51,322 nucleotides of DNA. Origin: an uncultured Nitrospira sp. GTDB lineage: Bacteria; Nitrospirota; Nitrospiria; Nitrospirales; Nitrospiraceae. Of this stretch, positions 22,835 through 31,561 are shown in pieces. The stretch covers positions 1 through 51,322 of the forward strand of contig CABVSR010000027.1 of assembly GCA_902500995.1 (NCBI GenBank), in the 5' to 3' direction. Made by a program: the position numbers and the translations under genes. Within the stretch, counting starts at the first letter, position 1; each line of letters starts with the position of its first letter. A model generated the notes under the pieces. That model did not search any database, was not told where the DNA came from, and saw only the letters and a program-made list of their open reading frames with translations.

Positions 22835-23305
22835 ATGAGTGATGTGGCCGCAGAAATTAAAGTCGGCGATACCGCGCCGGATTTTACCTTAAAGGATCAG
22901 GATCAAAAGGACGTCAAGTTGAGCGACTATCGAGGGAAGAGCAATGTCGTGCTCGCGTTCTACCCGCTCGACTGGAGCCCGGTTTGTCAGGGAGAAAATA
23001 AGTGCCTGACCGACGACTTCCCCAAGTTCCAGAGTGCCCATGCGGAATTGTTCGGCGTCAGCTGCGACAGTTTCTTCTCTCACAAGGCCTGGGCGGATTC
23101 GCTGGACCTGAAGCACCGCCTCCTGTCCGACTTCAACCGCGAAGTCGTCAAGAAGTACGGGCTGTATTTTGAGCCGCTGAATTGCGGCAAGCGCGCCACG
23201 GTCATCGTCGACAAGAACGGCAAAGTGGCGTACGTCAAGGTTCAGGAAATCAAGGTCGCGCGGGAAGACAAAGATATTCTCGCCGCCCTCGCGAAACTGA
23301 GCTAA
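22835..23305 (+). CDS. Peroxiredoxin (AhpC/TSA family)
   Basis: 156 residues. Thioredoxin-fold peroxidase reducing H2O2 and organic peroxides. The N-terminus [11 protein letters not shown] and the active-site segment [13 protein letters not shown] place the peroxidatic Cys at residue 51; Cys57 six residues on and Cys in PLNCGKR are candidate resolving residues. Trp47 and Ser48 replace the more common Phe-Thr, as in some AhpE-like members. AGGAGGA lies 5-6 bases before the ATG. A thioredoxin-like gene follows 74 bases later and could recycle it. Confidence 0.92.
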
Positions 23306-23379
23306 GTACCAGCACGGAGACCGGGGGAAGGGCCTTGAGAGGCTCTCCCCCAGTCATCCCTCCCGCAGGAGAAGATCCC

Positions 23380-23712
23380 ATGACCGGCACAGTCCAAGAC
23401 GTTCGGGACGAAAACTATAAAGAATTCACCGAAAGTGCCGGTGCAGTCGTCGCCTATGGCCTGGCTACCTGCGAGCCCTGCAAGCAGTATGATCCCATTC
23501 TGGAAGAAACCGCGGCGAAGTTTCCGACCATCAAGATCGGCAAGGCCAAGATGCATGTGCCCGGCCGTTGCCGCGAGATCAAGAAAGCGCATACGTTTGA
23601 GACCTACCCCACGACACACTTCTTTGCCCAGGGCAAACTCCTGCTGACTCGTGAAGGCGTGATTGAGCCGACCGAGCTGGCAGCCCTCATTTCCGACCAT
23701 TTGCTGAAGTAA
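23380..23712 (+). CDS. Thioredoxin-like protein
   Basis: 110 residues from the ATG at 23380 (GCAGGAGAAG upstream). The fold is thioredoxin-like with active site ATCEPCKQYDP (Cys31-x-x-Cys34), then a strand KIGKAKMHV and the cis-Pro region TFETYPTTHFFAQGKLL. The CEPC pair differs from CGPC of thioredoxin, and there is no signal peptide, so it is a cytoplasmic thiol-disulfide protein. It follows the peroxiredoxin directly and is likely its electron donor; that is inference from adjacency. Confidence 0.88.
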   Translation: MTGTVQDVRDENYKEFTESAGAVVAYGLATCEPCKQYDPILEETAAKFPTIKIGKAKMHVPGRCREIKKAHTFETYPTTHFFAQGKLLLTREGVIEPTELAALISDHLLK

Positions 23713-23892: not shown

Positions 23893-24744
23893 ATGCACCC
23901 TTTGTCTTGGCTCCTGCTTGCTCTCGCCGGTCTACTCCGGCTCGTGATACCCGAAATCAGCAGCGGACAAGGCATCCCGTCAAGCGCCTTTCCAGCCGCC
24001 AGCCATACTGAATTCGGCGCCATCACAATCAAGGCTCCCCAAAGCGCGCCGATGGCCTTGATCCCCGCCGGCGAGTTCGCCATGGGCAGTGACCGCGGCC
24101 AGGACGACGAGCAGCCGGTGCATCGCGTCTCCGTGAAGGCGTTTTATTTGGATACACAAGAAGTGACGGTCTCGCGTTACGCCGAGTTTCTCGTCTCACA
24201 AAAACCAGATCCGCCCTTCAAGTGGAACGAAGCCACCAGCGGATCCCATGAAAATAAACCGGTGGTGGGCGTCAATTGGTACGACGCGCGCGACTACTGC
24301 CGATGGGTCGGAAGACGATTGCCCACGGAAGCCGAATGGGAGCTGGCTGCACGCGGCACGGAGGGGCGGAGGTACCCCTGGGGAGACGCGCATCCCACGA
24401 GAGGTCACGCCAACGCCGGGCAGACCAAATGGCGCGGTTACGACACCATGACCAACGTGGGCCGATTCGAATTAGGCAAGACGCCCGACGGAGTCTACGA
24501 CTTGGCCGGAAATCTGTGGGAATGGGTCGCCGACTGGTACGAGCCCACCTACTATCAGTTTAGCCCTCGGGAGAACCCCTCCGGTCCTCGGATAGGCCCG
24601 CTCAGGGGATTGCGGGGCGGAGCGTGGAATAATGACGCCCAGACCATTCGCTCCGCCAATCGCGCCGGGTATGCGCCGGATGCGCGAAGAAATGATGTGG
24701 GATTTCGCTGCGCCAAGGATGCGCCGCCATCGAACGGGCGCTAG
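23893..24744 (+). CDS. Exported SUMF1/FGE-fold protein without catalytic Cys
   Basis: 283 residues from the ATG at 23893, which starts a hydrophobic signal segment (LSWLLLALAGLLRLVIP). The mature part is the formylglycine-generating-enzyme fold: ALIPAGEFAMGSDRG, EQPVHRVSVKAFYLD, TQEVTVSRYAEFL, GVNWYDARDYCRWVGRRLPT, EAEWELAARG, LWEWVADWYEP, LRGGAWNND and GFRCAKD. In true FGEs two cysteines follow the RGGS-type motif; here GGAWNNDAQTIRSANRAG has none, so sulfatase activation is unlikely and a binding or structural role is more likely. Its TAG stop and that of the minus-strand neighbour share one CTAG. Confidence 0.88.
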   Translation: MHPLSWLLLALAGLLRLVIPEISSGQGIPSSAFPAASHTEFGAITIKAPQSAPMALIPAGEFAMGSDRGQDDEQPVHRVSVKAFYLDTQEVTVSRYAEFLVSQKPDPPFKWNEATSGSHENKPVVGVNWYDARDYCRWVGRRLPTEAEWELAARGTEGRRYPWGDAHPTRGHANAGQTKWRGYDTMTNVGRFELGKTPDGVYDLAGNLWEWVADWYEPTYYQFSPRENPSGPRIGPLRGLRGGAWNNDAQTIRSANRAGYAPDARRNDVGFRCAKDAPPSNGR

Positions 24745-25493
24745 AACAGTCGGGAACTGAAGGCGGGAGATTCGAGCGGCCGCATGGCCTGATTCAGCTC
24801 CGCCGGTCGATCTGTGGAGCGTAACCGGATCTTAAAGACTACGCGCCGGCTTTTGTCCCGGTCGAGCACCCGCAATTGATCCACGACCAAATCCTGCCGG
24901 CCCCGGCCGCTGGCCGACGTTTTTTCATGAAAGCAACGATAGGCCCAGGGCGCTGAGTCTTTGATCACTTCCAGCCCCTTGACCATGACGTTCAATGATC
25001 GTTCTTGGCTGAGCTTCAAATTGTAAATGTCCGACCCGCGATCGTCGGTATGCCCTTCGATGACCAGCGAATCGATACGGTCACGCATGGCCCCGCACAG
25101 GAGCGCGGCATAGGTGGGCATGGCCTCTGCCAGGAAGTGATCCGCGACGGAGGAGAGCGTTCCCTTCCCGAACTCGAAGTTCAGCAAGGCGTCGGGCACG
25201 ACAATCCGGACCACGTTGGGGTCCGCAGGGTCGGCGTCCAACGACAGATCGAACCGCTGGAAGTGGTCGCGGAGAACGCCCTTCATATCCTCTGTGGTGC
25301 TGGTCGCGGCATTGCGCTCGGGCGCCTGCACGGGAAGCTTGACCGTCGCTTGCACTTCCGCTTCAGACACCTTGGTGACGTAGGCACTGAAGAGCAGGAT
25401 AAAAATGACCGCCAGCGAGGTCATCAAATCGGTGATCCCGATGGTGAGCGCCGAGGACTGTTCAGTCGATTCCGGCGAATGGTGAGAGCGCAT
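24741..25493 (-). CDS. ZorB/MotB-like OmpA-domain motor protein
   Basis: 250 residues from the ATG at 25493, two bases after the stop of the upstream gene. It has a short cytoplasmic N-terminus, one membrane helix LMTSLAVIFILLFSAYV preceded by Asp22, the position of the ion-binding Asp in MotB/ExbD/ZorB. After a linker comes an OmpA-like peptidoglycan-binding domain (LNFEFGKGTLSSVADHFL, LVIEGHTDDRGSDIYNLK, LSQERSLNVMV). Together with the upstream protein it would form an ion-driven stator anchored to the wall. There are no flagellar genes nearby. Confidence 0.85.
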   Translation of the reverse strand: MRSHHSPESTEQSSALTIGITDLMTSLAVIFILLFSAYVTKVSEAEVQATVKLPVQAPERNAATSTTEDMKGVLRDHFQRFDLSLDADPADPNVVRIVVPDALLNFEFGKGTLSSVADHFLAEAMPTYAALLCGAMRDRIDSLVIEGHTDDRGSDIYNLKLSQERSLNVMVKGLEVIKDSAPWAYRCFHEKTSASGRGRQDLVVDQLRVLDRDKSRRVVFKIRLRSTDRPAELNQAMRPLESPAFSSRLF

Positions 25494-25495
25494 GA

Positions 25496-26743
25496 TCAGG
25501 CCGCGCCTTTCATCGAGACGCCTTGCCGCCAATTCGCAAACCATCGCAGCCCCAGCATACTACCATCAGGCTCAACTTCCTGTGGGACTTCCTGTTCCAG
25601 TCCCACCGTCGGCACCTCGTCCAACGATTCGAATTCAAATTCGTCCGAAACCGGTTGAAGGCTTCGATCCCGTTTCAACTCTTCTACCGAGCGGGCGAGC
25701 GTCTGAATGGCCTGATTCAATTCCTGAATCGGTGCCGCCATCGTCTGCTGCATGACCCGTGACAGTTCCTCTGCCAGCCGGTCAGGAGCCGCTGCGCGAC
25801 TGCCCTGCTCACGCCTGGACAACACCTCCACCGCCTCCCGGAGGGCAGTCACCGTCGGGCTTAATCGATCGCTCAGACTGCCCGCCAGCCGATCGCCCAG
25901 ATCACCCGACACCGCACTCACTGCCGCCTGGGTTTGCGCCGGCGCCGGACCGGCCCCCGGCGTGAAATTTTCCAGCATCTGCTCCATGGTTTTGCGGGGA
26001 AACAACTCGTCCACCATCGTGACGAATTGTTGTTGGGTTCTCGCCATACGATGCATGGCCGACTTCTCAAGCAACACGAACAGGTTGGCACAGAGCAGAC
26101 CGACGATCGACGTCAGAAACTTCCCCGCCAGACCGTTGATTAAGCCCTGAATTCCGACGATATGTGATCCATCTGCATGCAGCTTACTTAAACCGATCAG
26201 GATTGCCAGAAACGTGAGCAGCAGGCCGCCGCCTGTGATGAGCGAAGGAAACTGATGATAGAACGCCAGATTCAAACGGCTGTTCAGCAGGTCGCGAGGG
26301 AAAAACTCCGCCGCCGTCCTTGTGGCGAAGACTTTCGGTTCGATAAACCAGGCTGTACGCTCGACGACGAAGGTCTTGCGAAAGTGTAGCCAGGCTTGCT
26401 CCAGGCGCGGCTCACCGCGCATGGCCTTATCCAAGGTCTGGAGATCGTCCAGGTCAATGCGCTCCGGCGGCGCGCCAGGTTGCGGCGCTTTCCTGACATC
26501 GCTGAGGCTCGGAATCTTCAACCACTCGGCTTGGAGACTTTTGCGGCTTGCGGCCAGACTGGTCAATGTCGGCCATACCCGCATGTAACAACCCTGCACG
26601 CTGGAAATGGCCGCCGATAACCGCCCTGCGTGCCATATGAACAGAGCGATCAGCCCTCCGGATCCGAGCCAACTCAACAGCGGGCTGTGGAGTTCGCCCA
26701 AGAGCGTCACATCCCGGCCTAAAAATTCCCATAGAGACATCAT
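25496..26743 (-). CDS. ZorA/MotA-like membrane channel protein with long tail
   Basis: 415 residues, ATG at 26743 with GGAGGTG about 8 bases upstream. Predicted helices: TM1 ~22-40, a cytoplasmic domain ~41-160, TM2 ~165-188 (FPSLITGGGLLLTFLAILIG) and TM3 ~203-226 (GLAGKFLTSIVGLLCANLFV), the three-helix MotA/TolQ/ExbB/ZorA channel plan. The TM2-TM3 sequence is most like ZorA of Zorya anti-phage systems in my reading. A ~190-residue C-terminal tail rich in Gln, Leu and Arg heptads (LSDRLSPTVTALREAVEVL, LARSVEELKR) is probably coiled coil. ZorC, ZorD and ZorE are not beside it. Confidence 0.8.
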   Translation of the reverse strand: MMSLWEFLGRDVTLLGELHSPLLSWLGSGGLIALFIWHAGRLSAAISSVQGCYMRVWPTLTSLAASRKSLQAEWLKIPSLSDVRKAPQPGAPPERIDLDDLQTLDKAMRGEPRLEQAWLHFRKTFVVERTAWFIEPKVFATRTAAEFFPRDLLNSRLNLAFYHQFPSLITGGGLLLTFLAILIGLSKLHADGSHIVGIQGLINGLAGKFLTSIVGLLCANLFVLLEKSAMHRMARTQQQFVTMVDELFPRKTMEQMLENFTPGAGPAPAQTQAAVSAVSGDLGDRLAGSLSDRLSPTVTALREAVEVLSRREQGSRAAAPDRLAEELSRVMQQTMAAPIQELNQAIQTLARSVEELKRDRSLQPVSDEFEFESLDEVPTVGLEQEVPQEVEPDGSMLGLRWFANWRQGVSMKGAA

Positions 26744-27116
26744 GGCGTAGCACCTCCGACTCGAAACACACCGCCGACTACTTCAGGGTCAGTGCGTTAT
26801 CAAGTTTCAGGCCAGGATGTCTGCTCAAAGAAACGGCGAGAACCTTGGAAATTTAATCGTGGTTATTTCGCTTGGACGAACGGACTCGGCAAGAATTGCC
26901 GACCTGATGAATCTTTTTGCAGTCTCCTCTTTCCCTTACCTGCCTTCGTCTACCGACGAACCAAGCCCTAGCTGGGCCCGCAATAGATCATGACGGGTGA
27001 TGGATCGAACCACCTTCCCTATATGCCGCCCCGTCATTCGACGGTGATAGATTTCAGCATCGGTGCTGTGTCATGAATAGAGACGCATCCTTTATGTGCG
27101 ATTGAGGCAGGTCTCC
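26744..27116. other. Intergenic region with small dyads
   Basis: 373 bases between divergent genes with no protein gene that I can support. TCGGCAA at 26886-26892 and TTGCCGA at 26896-26902 form a perfect 7-bp stem with a GAA loop, followed on the plus strand by TCTTTTT ten bases on. CCGTC/GACGG at ~27030-27043 is a second small hairpin. The region probably holds the divergent promoters of the motor-like pair and of the small membrane protein; no clear -35/-10 pair stands out. Confidence 0.4.
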
Positions 27117-27596: not shown

Positions 27597-28349
27597 TCAG
27601 CCCGCGTATTCGTACGACAAATCGCGGGTTTGAACAAGTTTCACAAGCTGAAGGCGGCCTGTCGGGACGACCGAATAGATGCGCTCCCATACGGCCTTGG
27701 CGAGATATTCGCCTGTGACGGACGGAGTGGCCAACACCCTGCGGAGATCTTGTCCTTCAAAAGGAAGTAGGACCAGCTCTTTGACCAGGCGATCCAGCGC
27801 GACGATATCGGTCACCATCCCGGTCTCGGGGTGAATCGGCCCATGCACGGATACAAAGAGATCCCAGGTATGGCCGCGATGACCGTCGTGTACCGCCGTA
27901 AATGAGTACCGCCTGGTGACCGACGCGACATCCAATCCGGCTTCAGCCGTGAGGTCGGCGCAGAGATCCTCGTCCTCATACAAAGACAGCCGTTGAAGCG
28001 TACCGATGTCAGGTTGGGCTTGGAGTTTGTTCCAGAGGACACGCGCCAGGTTCTCGGAAGTAGGAATGTGGCGATCAAAGTAGGGCAGGTCCAAATTCAA
28101 GTGCTTATGATCAAACTCTTCGAGTACTTGCAGCAACACACGCTTGAGATCGAAGAGGTTCACCACCATGCCGGTTCGAGGATCGACCTCTCCTTGGACG
28201 GTGACTTCCAACATATAGTTGTGCCCGTGCCCGGGATCGTTGTTGCACGCGCCGAACATGGCACGATTCTTAGCCGCGTCCCACTCCGGTTTGTGATAGC
28301 GGTGGGACGCGCAAAACTCGATACGCTTATTCAAAAGGACAGAGGCCAT
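27597..28349 (-). CDS. Tandem-domain PTPS/QueD-family protein
   Basis: 250 residues with two 6-pyruvoyl-tetrahydropterin-synthase-type domains. Domain 1 (~1-125) has a zinc His in CASHRYH, the catalytic Cys35 in FGACNNDPGHGHNYMLEV with two further zinc His (41, 43), and FDHKHLNLDLP and PTSENLA. Domain 2 (~140-250) follows the same order (RRYSFTAVHDGHRGHTWDLF, HPETGMVTDIVALDR, TGEYLAKAVWERI) but lacks the catalytic Cys. Single-domain QueD proteins are ~120-150 residues. Reaction may be 6-carboxytetrahydropterin synthesis for queuosine, or a related pterin step. It lies 92 bases downstream of the DUF3501 gene on the same strand. Confidence 0.85.
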   Translation of the reverse strand: MASVLLNKRIEFCASHRYHKPEWDAAKNRAMFGACNNDPGHGHNYMLEVTVQGEVDPRTGMVVNLFDLKRVLLQVLEEFDHKHLNLDLPYFDRHIPTSENLARVLWNKLQAQPDIGTLQRLSLYEDEDLCADLTAEAGLDVASVTRRYSFTAVHDGHRGHTWDLFVSVHGPIHPETGMVTDIVALDRLVKELVLLPFEGQDLRRVLATPSVTGEYLAKAVWERIYSVVPTGRLQLVKLVQTRDLSYEYAG

Positions 28350-30447: not shown

Positions 30448-30873
30448 TTACTGCTTCAAACTATCGAGACCCTTGGTAAAGCGATTGGCGTGGGACCGCT
30501 CGGCTTTGGCCAACGTCTCAAACCATTCCGCCAATTCCGAGAACCCTTCGTCACGCGCCGTCTTCGCCATGCCCGGATACATCTGGGTATATTCGTACGT
30601 TTCCCCTTCGATGGCCGACTTCAAATTGGCTTCGGTATTGCCGATCGGCACCCCGGTGGCGGGATCGCCGACTTCTTTGAGAAAATCCAGGTGTCCAAAG
30701 GCATGGCCGGTTTCCGCCTCAGACGTGTCACGGAACAGCCCGCCCACATCGGGATATCCTTCAATGTCGGCCCGGCGGGCGAAATAGAGATACCGCCGGT
30801 TGGCTTGCGACTCTCCGGCAAACGCGTGCTTCAGATTCTCATGACTCTTGGTGCCCTTTAAACTGTTTCCCAT
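30448..30873 (-). CDS. Rubrerythrin (diiron domain only)
   Basis: 141 residues from the ATG at 30873, which has AAGGAGGAGAG upstream. The four-helix ferritin-like diiron fold is shown by [52 protein letters not shown] and [12 protein letters not shown], with the two ExxH pairs. The usual C-terminal rubredoxin domain is missing. Rubrerythrins reduce H2O2 in the cytoplasm. The gene starts inside the 3' end of the upstream regulator gene (35-base overlap), which points to translational coupling and to control by that regulator. Confidence 0.93.
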
Positions 30874-31354
30874 GCTCTCCTCCTTCAATAAATGACGGCG
30901 CCAACCTACGATGAGGCGACACGTCGCGTCTGGCCTGCTGACAACTCACACAATACCCGTAGAATTCCACTCGATGGCGCAGGACATCAAATCCTTTCGC
31001 CTGCCCGTTCGAAAGCTGCAACCGATTCAACTCATCGTCCATCACATCCATAATCTGGCCGCATCCCAGGCAGATCAGATGGTGATGCAGGCTCACGTTC
31101 CCGTCATACCGCGCCATATCATGACCGACGTTGACTTCCCGGACCAACCCCGCGGTTCGCAAGACGCCGAGTGTGTAGTACACGGTGTTGCGCGAGATCA
31201 TGGGCTGCCGGCGTTTCACGATCCGGTAGAGATCATCGGCGCTCGGATGGCTCGTCGTGGCAGCCAACGCCGCATAAATTGCCGCACGCTGGCGGGTGAG
31301 CCGTACCGCATGCCGGCGAAAACGCGCCTCAATCTCCTGCAGGGGTAGGTTCAT
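30839..31354 (-). CDS. Fur-family regulator, PerR-like
   Basis: 171 residues from the ATG at 31354. The winged helix (LTRQRAAIYAALAA, SADDLYRIVKRRQPMISRNTVYYTLGVL) is followed by the dimerisation domain with HHHLICLGCGQIMDV and a C-terminal YCVSCQQA, the two CxxC pairs of a structural zinc site. His/Asp metal-sensing residues (GHDMARYDG, SLHHH) suggest a PerR-type peroxide sensor rather than Fur; this is inferred mainly from the coupled rubrerythrin gene. The extended C-terminus (~20 residues past the Cys pair) overlaps the rubrerythrin start. Confidence 0.9.
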   Translation of the reverse strand: MNLPLQEIEARFRRHAVRLTRQRAAIYAALAATTSHPSADDLYRIVKRRQPMISRNTVYYTLGVLRTAGLVREVNVGHDMARYDGNVSLHHHLICLGCGQIMDVMDDELNRLQLSNGQAKGFDVLRHRVEFYGYCVSCQQARRDVSPHRRLAPSFIEGGEHGKQFKGHQES

Positions 31355-31371
31355 CCGTGAGTTCTCCAGCC

Positions 31372-31413
31372 AGGAATGATTCCTACATAGCACGGAGTTC
31401 CATCGCGCGGCAA
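31372..31413 (-). promoter_or_regulatory. PerR/Fur-like box inside the predicted promoter
   Basis: On the minus strand TTGCCG (31413-31408), an 18-base spacer and TATGTA (31389-31384) form a promoter. Directly after it, AGGAATGATTCCT at 31372-31384 is a perfect 6-1-6 palindrome with the central ATnAT core of PerR/Fur boxes. It would cover the start point of transcription of the regulator-rubrerythrin operon, 18 bases before the regulator's ATG, so autorepression is likely. Confidence 0.6.
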
Positions 31414-31561
31414 GGTCGCAGCAGACCCGCTTCACCCGCGTGAGCGCAAGAACAATCTTACGGCATGAGGACCGGGGAACCGATGTGAAACGGCATTGGC
31501 TACATACAGCAGGTTACGTAGCAGTCGGAGCGAAAACCGGCGGGATGAAGTGGGGGTCCGG

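What the first reader, a model, noticed from the sequence alone, without database searches (positions are those of the whole stretch)
24741..26743. ZorA/ZorB-like motor pair outside a Zorya operon
A three-helix ZorA/MotA-like channel with a ~190-residue coiled-coil tail is directly followed (2-base gap) by a one-helix OmpA-domain protein with an Asp at the ion-binding position (Asp22). This is the stator plan of Zorya anti-phage systems, but ZorC, ZorD and ZorE are not present in the 10 kb on either side. The neighbours are an exported SUMF1-fold protein and a small tail-anchored coiled-coil protein. It may be a separate ion-driven sensing or force-transmitting device, or a Zorya variant with other effectors.
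Basis: partly seen in the sequence, partly recalled or inferred. Interest (0 to 1): 0.65.

Follow-up and report, generated by a model that had tools for sequence, protein, structure and literature searches.

The report
Free-standing short-tailed ZorAB motor pair
Almost all Nitrospira bacteria sampled carry, as a permanent chromosomal gene pair, an ion-driven membrane motor of the kind known from the Zorya anti-phage system, but with a much shorter tail and none of Zorya's DNA-attacking partners, so it probably does a job of its own that nobody has described.

Summary
On the minus strand, gene A (25496-26743, 415 aa) and gene B (24741-25493, 250 aa) are a ZorA/ZorB pair. PADLOC ZorA1 and ZorB1 profiles match at 1.5e-22 and 9e-39. 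The predicted A fold matches solved type I ZorA at 1e-9, far ahead of TolQ, ExbB and MotA. The polar channel residues (T177, S212), ion-binding Asp (D22) and peptidoglycan-binding residues are conserved.

It is not a Zorya system. The pair is single-copy in 29/29 genomes of the genus (that of Candidatus Nitrospira defluvii) and widespread in Nitrospirales, with no constant neighbour. ZorD occurs in at most 5 of 395 phylum genomes, none in the genus. In 80 named loci, long ZorA (tail about 436 aa) is followed by ZorC in 17/18; short ZorA (about 175 aa) in 0/50.

The Nitrospirales short pairs form one clade beside a complete Nitrospira Zorya I. They evolve under purifying selection, share an upstream operator-like array, and in this genus end in a conserved Trp-rich tail tip.

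Best reading: a host-integrated, effector-less ZorA5B2-type motor coupling cell-wall state to the cytoplasm. Partner and phenotype are unknown. The SUMF1 and coiled-coil neighbours are not constantly linked.

The parts
25496..26743 (-). gene A: short-tailed ZorA homologue, 415 aa (MotA/TolQ/ExbB superfamily channel subunit)
   Evidence: PADLOC ZorA1 PDLC00598 1.5e-22; Foldseek best hits 8qyd/8vvn ZorA 1e-9 to 1e-6; 29/29 genus genomes
26186..26269 (-). A TM2 (residues 159-186) with polar-ring Thr177, equivalent to E. coli ZorA T147
   Evidence: AF2 helix 159-186; alignment to 8qyk chain; T177 invariant in 56 rows
26054..26152 (-). A TM3 (residues 198-230) with polar-ring Ser212, equivalent to E. 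coli ZorA S184; most conserved block (omega about 0.02)
25556..26053 (-). A cytoplasmic tail (residues 231-396): helical part to about 361, then fast-evolving linker 363-395
   Evidence: helices 253-260, 280-314, 320-361; linker 39% mean identity, omega 0.38
25499..25555 (-). A tail tip (residues 397-415), conserved LRWFANWRQ..KGA in the genus; Trp/aromatic + basic tip in several other genera
   Evidence: 86% mean identity, omega 0.07
24741..25493 (-). gene B: ZorB homologue, 250 aa, one TM plus periplasmic OmpA/peptidoglycan-binding domain
   Evidence: PADLOC ZorB1 PDLC00609 9e-39 over residues 4-235; OmpA 5.1e-7; Foldseek best hits ZorB 8vvi/8vvn 2e-9
25428..25430 (-). codon of B Asp22, the ion-binding residue (equivalent to ZorB D24/D21 of solved Zorya I/II)
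   Evidence: D22 invariant in 40 rows; functional role of equivalent from PMC11890865
24804..25229 (-). B OmpA-fold domain (residues 89-230) with H148, T149, L161, R165, R216 matching the peptidoglycan-contact residues of Zorya ZorB
   Evidence: residue list from PMC11890865; constant offset of 38 from Serratia numbering; omega 0.06
26887..26922 (-). conserved upstream element CTGCAAAAAGATTC-N7-CGGCAATTCTTGCCG, about 150 nt before A; likely operator or promoter element
   Evidence: half-sites CGGCA/TGCCG enriched upstream of short ZorA (68 vs 12.9 in shuffles) but not of Zorya ZorA (5 vs 4.2)

Best explanation
The pair is a free-standing, host-integrated ZorAB motor of the Nitrospirales, derived from the same ancestor as Zorya type I but not part of a defence operon. 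By homology, five A subunits surround two B transmembrane helices. H+ or Na+ passing the B Asp22 and the A Thr177/Ser212 ring turns A against B, while the B OmpA domains grip peptidoglycan, probably only when the wall is disturbed. The motion or conformational change runs down a short (about 110-130 residue helical) five-stranded tail to a conserved Trp-rich tip. That tip would engage a partner encoded elsewhere, or the membrane. The likely role is a chromosomal envelope-state sensor or force device, not DNA-degrading phage defence. Shown: homology, conservation of channel and wall-binding residues, single-copy core distribution in the genus, lack of ZorC/ZorD, short tail, purifying selection, conserved upstream element. 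Inferred: 5:2 assembly, ion flow, wall gating, tail-tip output, and the cellular role.
For: ZorA/ZorB profiles and fold. T177, S212 and D22 invariant. 29/29 genomes of the genus carry one copy each, adjacent in nearly all, 72-93% identity; 84 family f1 and 7 family f2 genomes of the order in a 395-genome phylum sample. No constant third gene in 41 neighbourhoods. ZorD in at most 5/395 phylum genomes and 0 of the genus; absent from the N. defluvii genome while positive controls rang. Tail lengths do not overlap (149-214 vs 338-647 aa); ZorC follows 17/18 long but 0/50 short ZorA. One short clade in Nitrospirales, 97/95 support, beside a complete Nitrospira Zorya I. omega about 0.08-0.09; tail tip conserved behind a variable linker. 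Shared upstream half-site array.
Against: No phenotype, expression or interaction data. ZorAB with a different third partner (type III ZorF/ZorG) is reported to defend (PMC8565338), so a defence role with partners in trans is not excluded. The gene tree does not fully follow taxonomy (g4 groups with f2; g2 is split), so some transfer occurred. Some Nitrospirales genomes lack the pair, so it is not essential to the order. The tip is not recognisable in every genus.
Confidence: 0.6

Rival explanations
1. A defence device after all: a reduced Zorya in which ZorAB senses phage damage to the wall and either depolarises the membrane or recruits an effector encoded elsewhere in the genome.
For: Closest relatives are all Zorya I; sensing and channel residues are intact; Zorya III shows that ZorAB can work with other partners (PMC8565338).
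Against: Present in 29/29 genomes of the genus in a stable chromosomal neighbourhood, unlike the patchy Zorya in the same phylum. No constant linked effector. In Zorya I and II each component was required and the long ZorA tail was essential (PMC11890865); here it is less than half as long.
Confidence: 0.2
2. An ordinary envelope or flagellar energiser (TolQR, ExbBD, MotAB type) mis-scored as ZorAB.
For: Same 5:2 superfamily; OmpA-type B subunit as in MotB; TolQ, ExbB and MotA appear further down the fold list.
Against: PF01618 (MotA_ExbB) does not detect A, although 4 other genes in the same genome match it. Foldseek ranks ZorA 1e-9 versus TolQ 1e-2 and MotA 0.2. ZorB profile covers all of B.
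Confidence: 0.1
3. A decaying remnant of a Zorya operon that lost ZorC and ZorD.
For: Sister to a complete Zorya I in Nitrospira; the rare Acidobacteriota short pairs may be such remnants (2 of 162 genomes).
Against: omega about 0.08 across 27 species, intact in all genus genomes, conserved tip and upstream element.
Confidence: 0.03
4. A part of a linked system with the neighbouring SUMF1-fold exported protein (a GldK/PorK-like arrangement) or the divergent tail-anchored coiled-coil protein.
For: SUMF1 gene is convergent and adjacent in the genus and in one more genus, and 2-3 kb away in a few g4 genomes; weak GldK profile match (2.5e-30, below cut-off).
Against: Opposite strand, so not co-transcribed; absent from the neighbourhoods of the other genera sampled; coiled-coil gene in only part of one genus.
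Confidence: 0.07

Closest known systems
Zorya type I ZorA/ZorB (E. coli 8QYD; Shewanella 8VVN)
   Same: Gene order A-B, three-TM channel subunit with cytoplasmic tail, one-TM OmpA-domain B, conserved polar ring, Asp and peptidoglycan-binding residues; best profile, fold and tree neighbours
   Different: Tail about 175-187 aa instead of about 440-500; no ZorC or ZorD; core single-copy gene in a genus instead of patchy; own upstream element; Trp-rich tail tip
Zorya type II (ZorA2B2 + ZorE) and type III (ZorAB + ZorF, ZorG)
   Same: ZorAB core; type II ZorA is also shorter (S. kujiense about 378 aa); type III shows other partners are possible
   Different: Profiles favour type I; no ZorE/F/G gene constantly linked
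MotAB flagellar stator
   Same: 5:2 superfamily logic; B with Asp in TM and OmpA-type domain
   Different: A is not detected by PF01618 and ranks far below ZorA by fold; no flagellar genes nearby
TolQR / ExbBD / AglRQS energisers
   Same: Superfamily of ion-driven 5:2 motors
   Different: B here has an OmpA domain, not the ExbD/TolR domain; long cytoplasmic tail on A; separate TolQ/ExbB/MotA-type genes exist in the genome

Membership tests
ZorAB motor family (ZorA + ZorB) | A subunit matches ZorA profile and fold | tested here: met
   PADLOC 1.5e-22; Foldseek 1.4e-9 to 8qyd_A; NCBIfam ZorA models only below their curated cut-offs
ZorAB motor family (ZorA + ZorB) | B subunit matches ZorB over full length with TM Asp and OmpA domain | tested here: met
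   PADLOC 9e-39, residues 4-235; D22 invariant; Foldseek 1.7e-9 to ZorB
ZorAB motor family (ZorA + ZorB) | 5:2 assembly and ion conduction | not testable with these tools
   complex prediction and biochemistry not available
Zorya type I defence system | ZorC and ZorD in the same operon | tested here: not met
   absent within the 10-kb flanks and in 0/50 short loci; ZorD absent genome-wide with positive controls; genome-wide ZorC test inconclusive, control silent
Zorya type I defence system | Long ZorA tail (about 440 aa or more), shown essential for defence | tested here: not met
   149-214 aa versus 338-647 aa, no overlap; essentiality from PMC11890865
Zorya type I defence system | Phage protection | not testable with these tools
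   no assay data for this pair
Zorya type III defence system | ZorF (DUF3348) and ZorG linked | tested here: inconclusive
   DUF3348 found in 0/29 genomes, but the control genomes were silent too; no such gene conserved in the neighbourhoods
MotA/TolQ/ExbB (PF01618) energisers | A matches PF01618 | tested here: not met
   no Pfam hit for A up to E = 1; 4 other genes of the genome do match

The most novel reading that the evidence does not exclude
ZorAB is not only an immune motor. The Nitrospirales kept (or domesticated) it as a chromosomal, effector-less rotary device that reads cell-wall state and signals or pulls through a short tail with a dedicated tip: a separate functional class of 5:2 ion-driven motors, under its own regulator.
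Probability: 0.5. Interest if true: 0.75.

Novelty: new variant of a known kind. Interest (0 to 1): 0.6.

Why it matters
ZorAB has been described as the engine of a phage-defence system. A version conserved in an environmentally important group of nitrite oxidisers, without the Zorya effectors, would show that the motor works on its own, would offer a minimal ZorAB for mechanistic work, and makes the direction of evolution (defence to housekeeping, or the reverse) testable. It also warns that profile searches for ZorA and ZorB alone will report 'Zorya' in nearly every Nitrospira genome.

Tried and rejected
A viral-contig scan with A and a phage tblastn gave no match, and a plasmid tblastn with a Zorya ZorA gave none; no sign of mobility. 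Linkage to the SUMF1-fold and coiled-coil neighbours was tested and rejected as constant. The upstream element as a regulon marker: the long pattern occurs once in the genome, and the 15-mer with 2 mismatches is not enriched over its reversed control (49 vs 67); the one other exact match lies inside an ORF frame (L181). Sigma-54 was considered and rejected because the GG-GC spacing is two bases short. The upstream transcript shows no unusual RNA fold (z -0.73). E. coli ZorA calcium-site glutamates E86/E89 align to H120/K123 here but are also missing in several Nitrospirota Zorya I ZorA, so they are not diagnostic. EH_Signature and DUF3348 genome searches were uninformative because their controls were silent. 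All short ZorA as one clade was rejected by the AU test (p 7.6e-7).

Full report
What is there. The two ORFs are real and lie on the minus strand: A at 25496-26743 (415 aa) and B at 24741-25493 (250 aa), with a 2-base gap. In other genera the two genes often overlap by 4 bases, as expected of a translationally coupled pair. PADLOC gives ZorA1 (1.5e-22) and ZorB1 (9e-39, full length). NCBIfam gives ZorA and ZorB as the best families, but below their curated cut-offs. Pfam sees only the OmpA domain of B. PF01618, the MotA/TolQ/ExbB family, finds four other genes in this genome but not A.

Anatomy. The AF2 model of A (mean pLDDT 71, good in the membrane and cytoplasmic core, poor in the tail) has a long first helix 22-74, TM2 159-186 and TM3 198-247, then tail helices 280-314 and 320-361 and a tip helix 397-414. 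Foldseek ranks solved ZorA type I first (1e-9 to 1e-6), TolQ at 1e-2, ExbB at 6e-2 and MotA at 0.2. B (pLDDT 80) matches solved ZorB of types I and II first. Aligned to E. coli ZorA (8qyk), T177 and S212 correspond to T147 and S184 and are invariant in 56 homologues. B Asp22 is invariant in 40. In Serratia/Shewanella Zorya the equivalent Asp is essential, and residues H186, T187, L199, R203 and R254 form the peptidoglycan site (PMC11890865). With a constant offset of 38 these are H148, T149, L161, R165 and R216 here (H148 is Tyr in part of one genus). So the ion path and the wall grip look intact.

Distribution. A and B are present once in all 29 genomes of the genus, at 73-88% (A) and 72-93% (B) identity; one draft splits B between two contigs and a few small contigs cut the pair. 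Contig lengths identify two members as Candidatus Nitrospira defluvii FP929003.1 and Nitrospira sp. UBC2 CP092081.1. In 395 genomes of the phylum, strong B matches occur in 84 genomes of the family and 7 of a second family of the order; at least 20 family genomes lack it, including several reduced ones of 1.7-2.0 Mb (counted by hand from the listing). By contrast ZorD occurs in at most 5 of the 395, and in none of the genus. Clustering all ORFs of 41 neighbourhoods shows that only A and B are shared; every other neighbour is conserved only within a genus or close group.

Real Zorya next door. The distant B matches in the phylum (L080-L084) have ZorA of 612-703 aa and, where the contig reaches, ZorC and ZorD, confirmed by PADLOC for L080. 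A scan of 84,980 species genomes with these long ZorA returned 80 loci that fall into two sets with no overlap: tail 338-647 aa (median 436) with ZorC directly downstream in 17 of 18 that have 1 kb or more of downstream sequence, and tail 149-214 aa (median 175) with ZorC in 0 of 50. The short set is nearly all one clade, so the count is descriptive, not 50 independent cases. Whole-genome ZorD searches of N. defluvii and the two Acidobacteriota short-ZorA genomes found no full-length ZorD, while two Zorya controls rang.

History. In a tree of A core plus B (45 rows) the 21 Nitrospirales short pairs form one group (97/95) whose neighbour is the complete Zorya I of Nitrospira sp. (L080, L116). 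Two Acidobacteriota short pairs (L117, L119) sit inside the Zorya I side, and one origin for all short pairs is rejected (AU p 7.6e-7). Short stand-alone pairs therefore arose, or survived, at least twice. The Acidobacteriota form is rare (2 of 162 genomes of its order); only the Nitrospirales form is core. The root is not inferred, so Zorya-to-housekeeping is the likelier but unproven direction. Within Nitrospirales the gene tree departs from taxonomy in places, so some transfer or old duplication occurred.

Selection and regulation. Across 27 genus members omega is 0.08 (A) and 0.09 (B). In the A tail the linker 363-395 is fast (39% identity, omega 0.38), while the last 20 residues are slow (86%, omega 0.07), with the motif LRWFANWRQ..KGA; several other genera end in a Trp/aromatic plus basic tip of different sequence, and part of g2 lacks it. 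That pattern is what a tethered binding peptide looks like. Upstream of A lies a conserved palindromic element (window 26887-26901), found in nearly all genus genomes and in variant form across the order. CGGCA/TGCCG half-sites number 68 in 34 short-ZorA upstream regions against 12.9 +/- 3.4 in shuffles, but 5 against 4.2 for Zorya ZorA. In this genome the exact arrangement occurs only here.

Mechanism. The best-supported model is a ZorA5B2-type motor: B grips peptidoglycan, ions pass the Asp/Thr/Ser site, A rotates or shifts, and the short tail carries the change to its tip, where a partner encoded elsewhere (or the membrane) is engaged. In Zorya I and II the tail, the wall-binding domain, the Asp and every effector were needed for phage protection (PMC11890865), and ZorAB alone is reported not to suffice for defence (PMC8565338). 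A pair with less than half the tail, no effector and core status in a genus is therefore unlikely to be a Zorya defence system in the usual sense, though a defence role with trans partners is not excluded. No held paper was found that describes a stand-alone ZorAB, or ZorAB in Nitrospira as such (the library is partial). A 2025 survey of stator homologues left ZorAB out of its phylogeny as too remote (PMC12505986).

Noticed in passing
window 26887-26922; variants upstream of A in L060-L179: Operator-like array of CGGCA/TGCCG half-sites about 150-190 nt upstream of A, conserved across Nitrospirales genera but absent upstream of Zorya ZorA; regulator unknown.
   Followed up: partly
L080:4981-12418, L116: Complete Zorya type I operons exist in Nitrospira relatives (G262; Nitrospira sp. 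JZ-4_Bin198); their ZorAB is the nearest Zorya relative of the stand-alone pair.
   Followed up: yes
L117:2814-4732, L119:6965-8760: Independent short, stand-alone ZorAB in two Acidobacteriota (Vicinamibacterales) genomes, nested in the Zorya I tree and rare in their order.
   Followed up: partly
window 27597-28349: 250-aa protein with two PTPS (6-pyruvoyl tetrahydropterin synthase / QueD-type) domain matches, apparently a fused tandem; conserved next to A in the genus.
   Followed up: no
window 22835-23712 and 30448-31435: Oxidative-stress genes around the pair: peroxiredoxin-like and thioredoxin on one side, rubrerythrin-like and Fur/PerR-like regulator on the other (read from sequence; only the thioredoxin was profile-tested).
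   Followed up: no
L082:400-3033 (G387): Zorya-type long ZorA/ZorB next to a contig end, with only a ZorC fragment visible; completeness undecided.
   Followed up: partly
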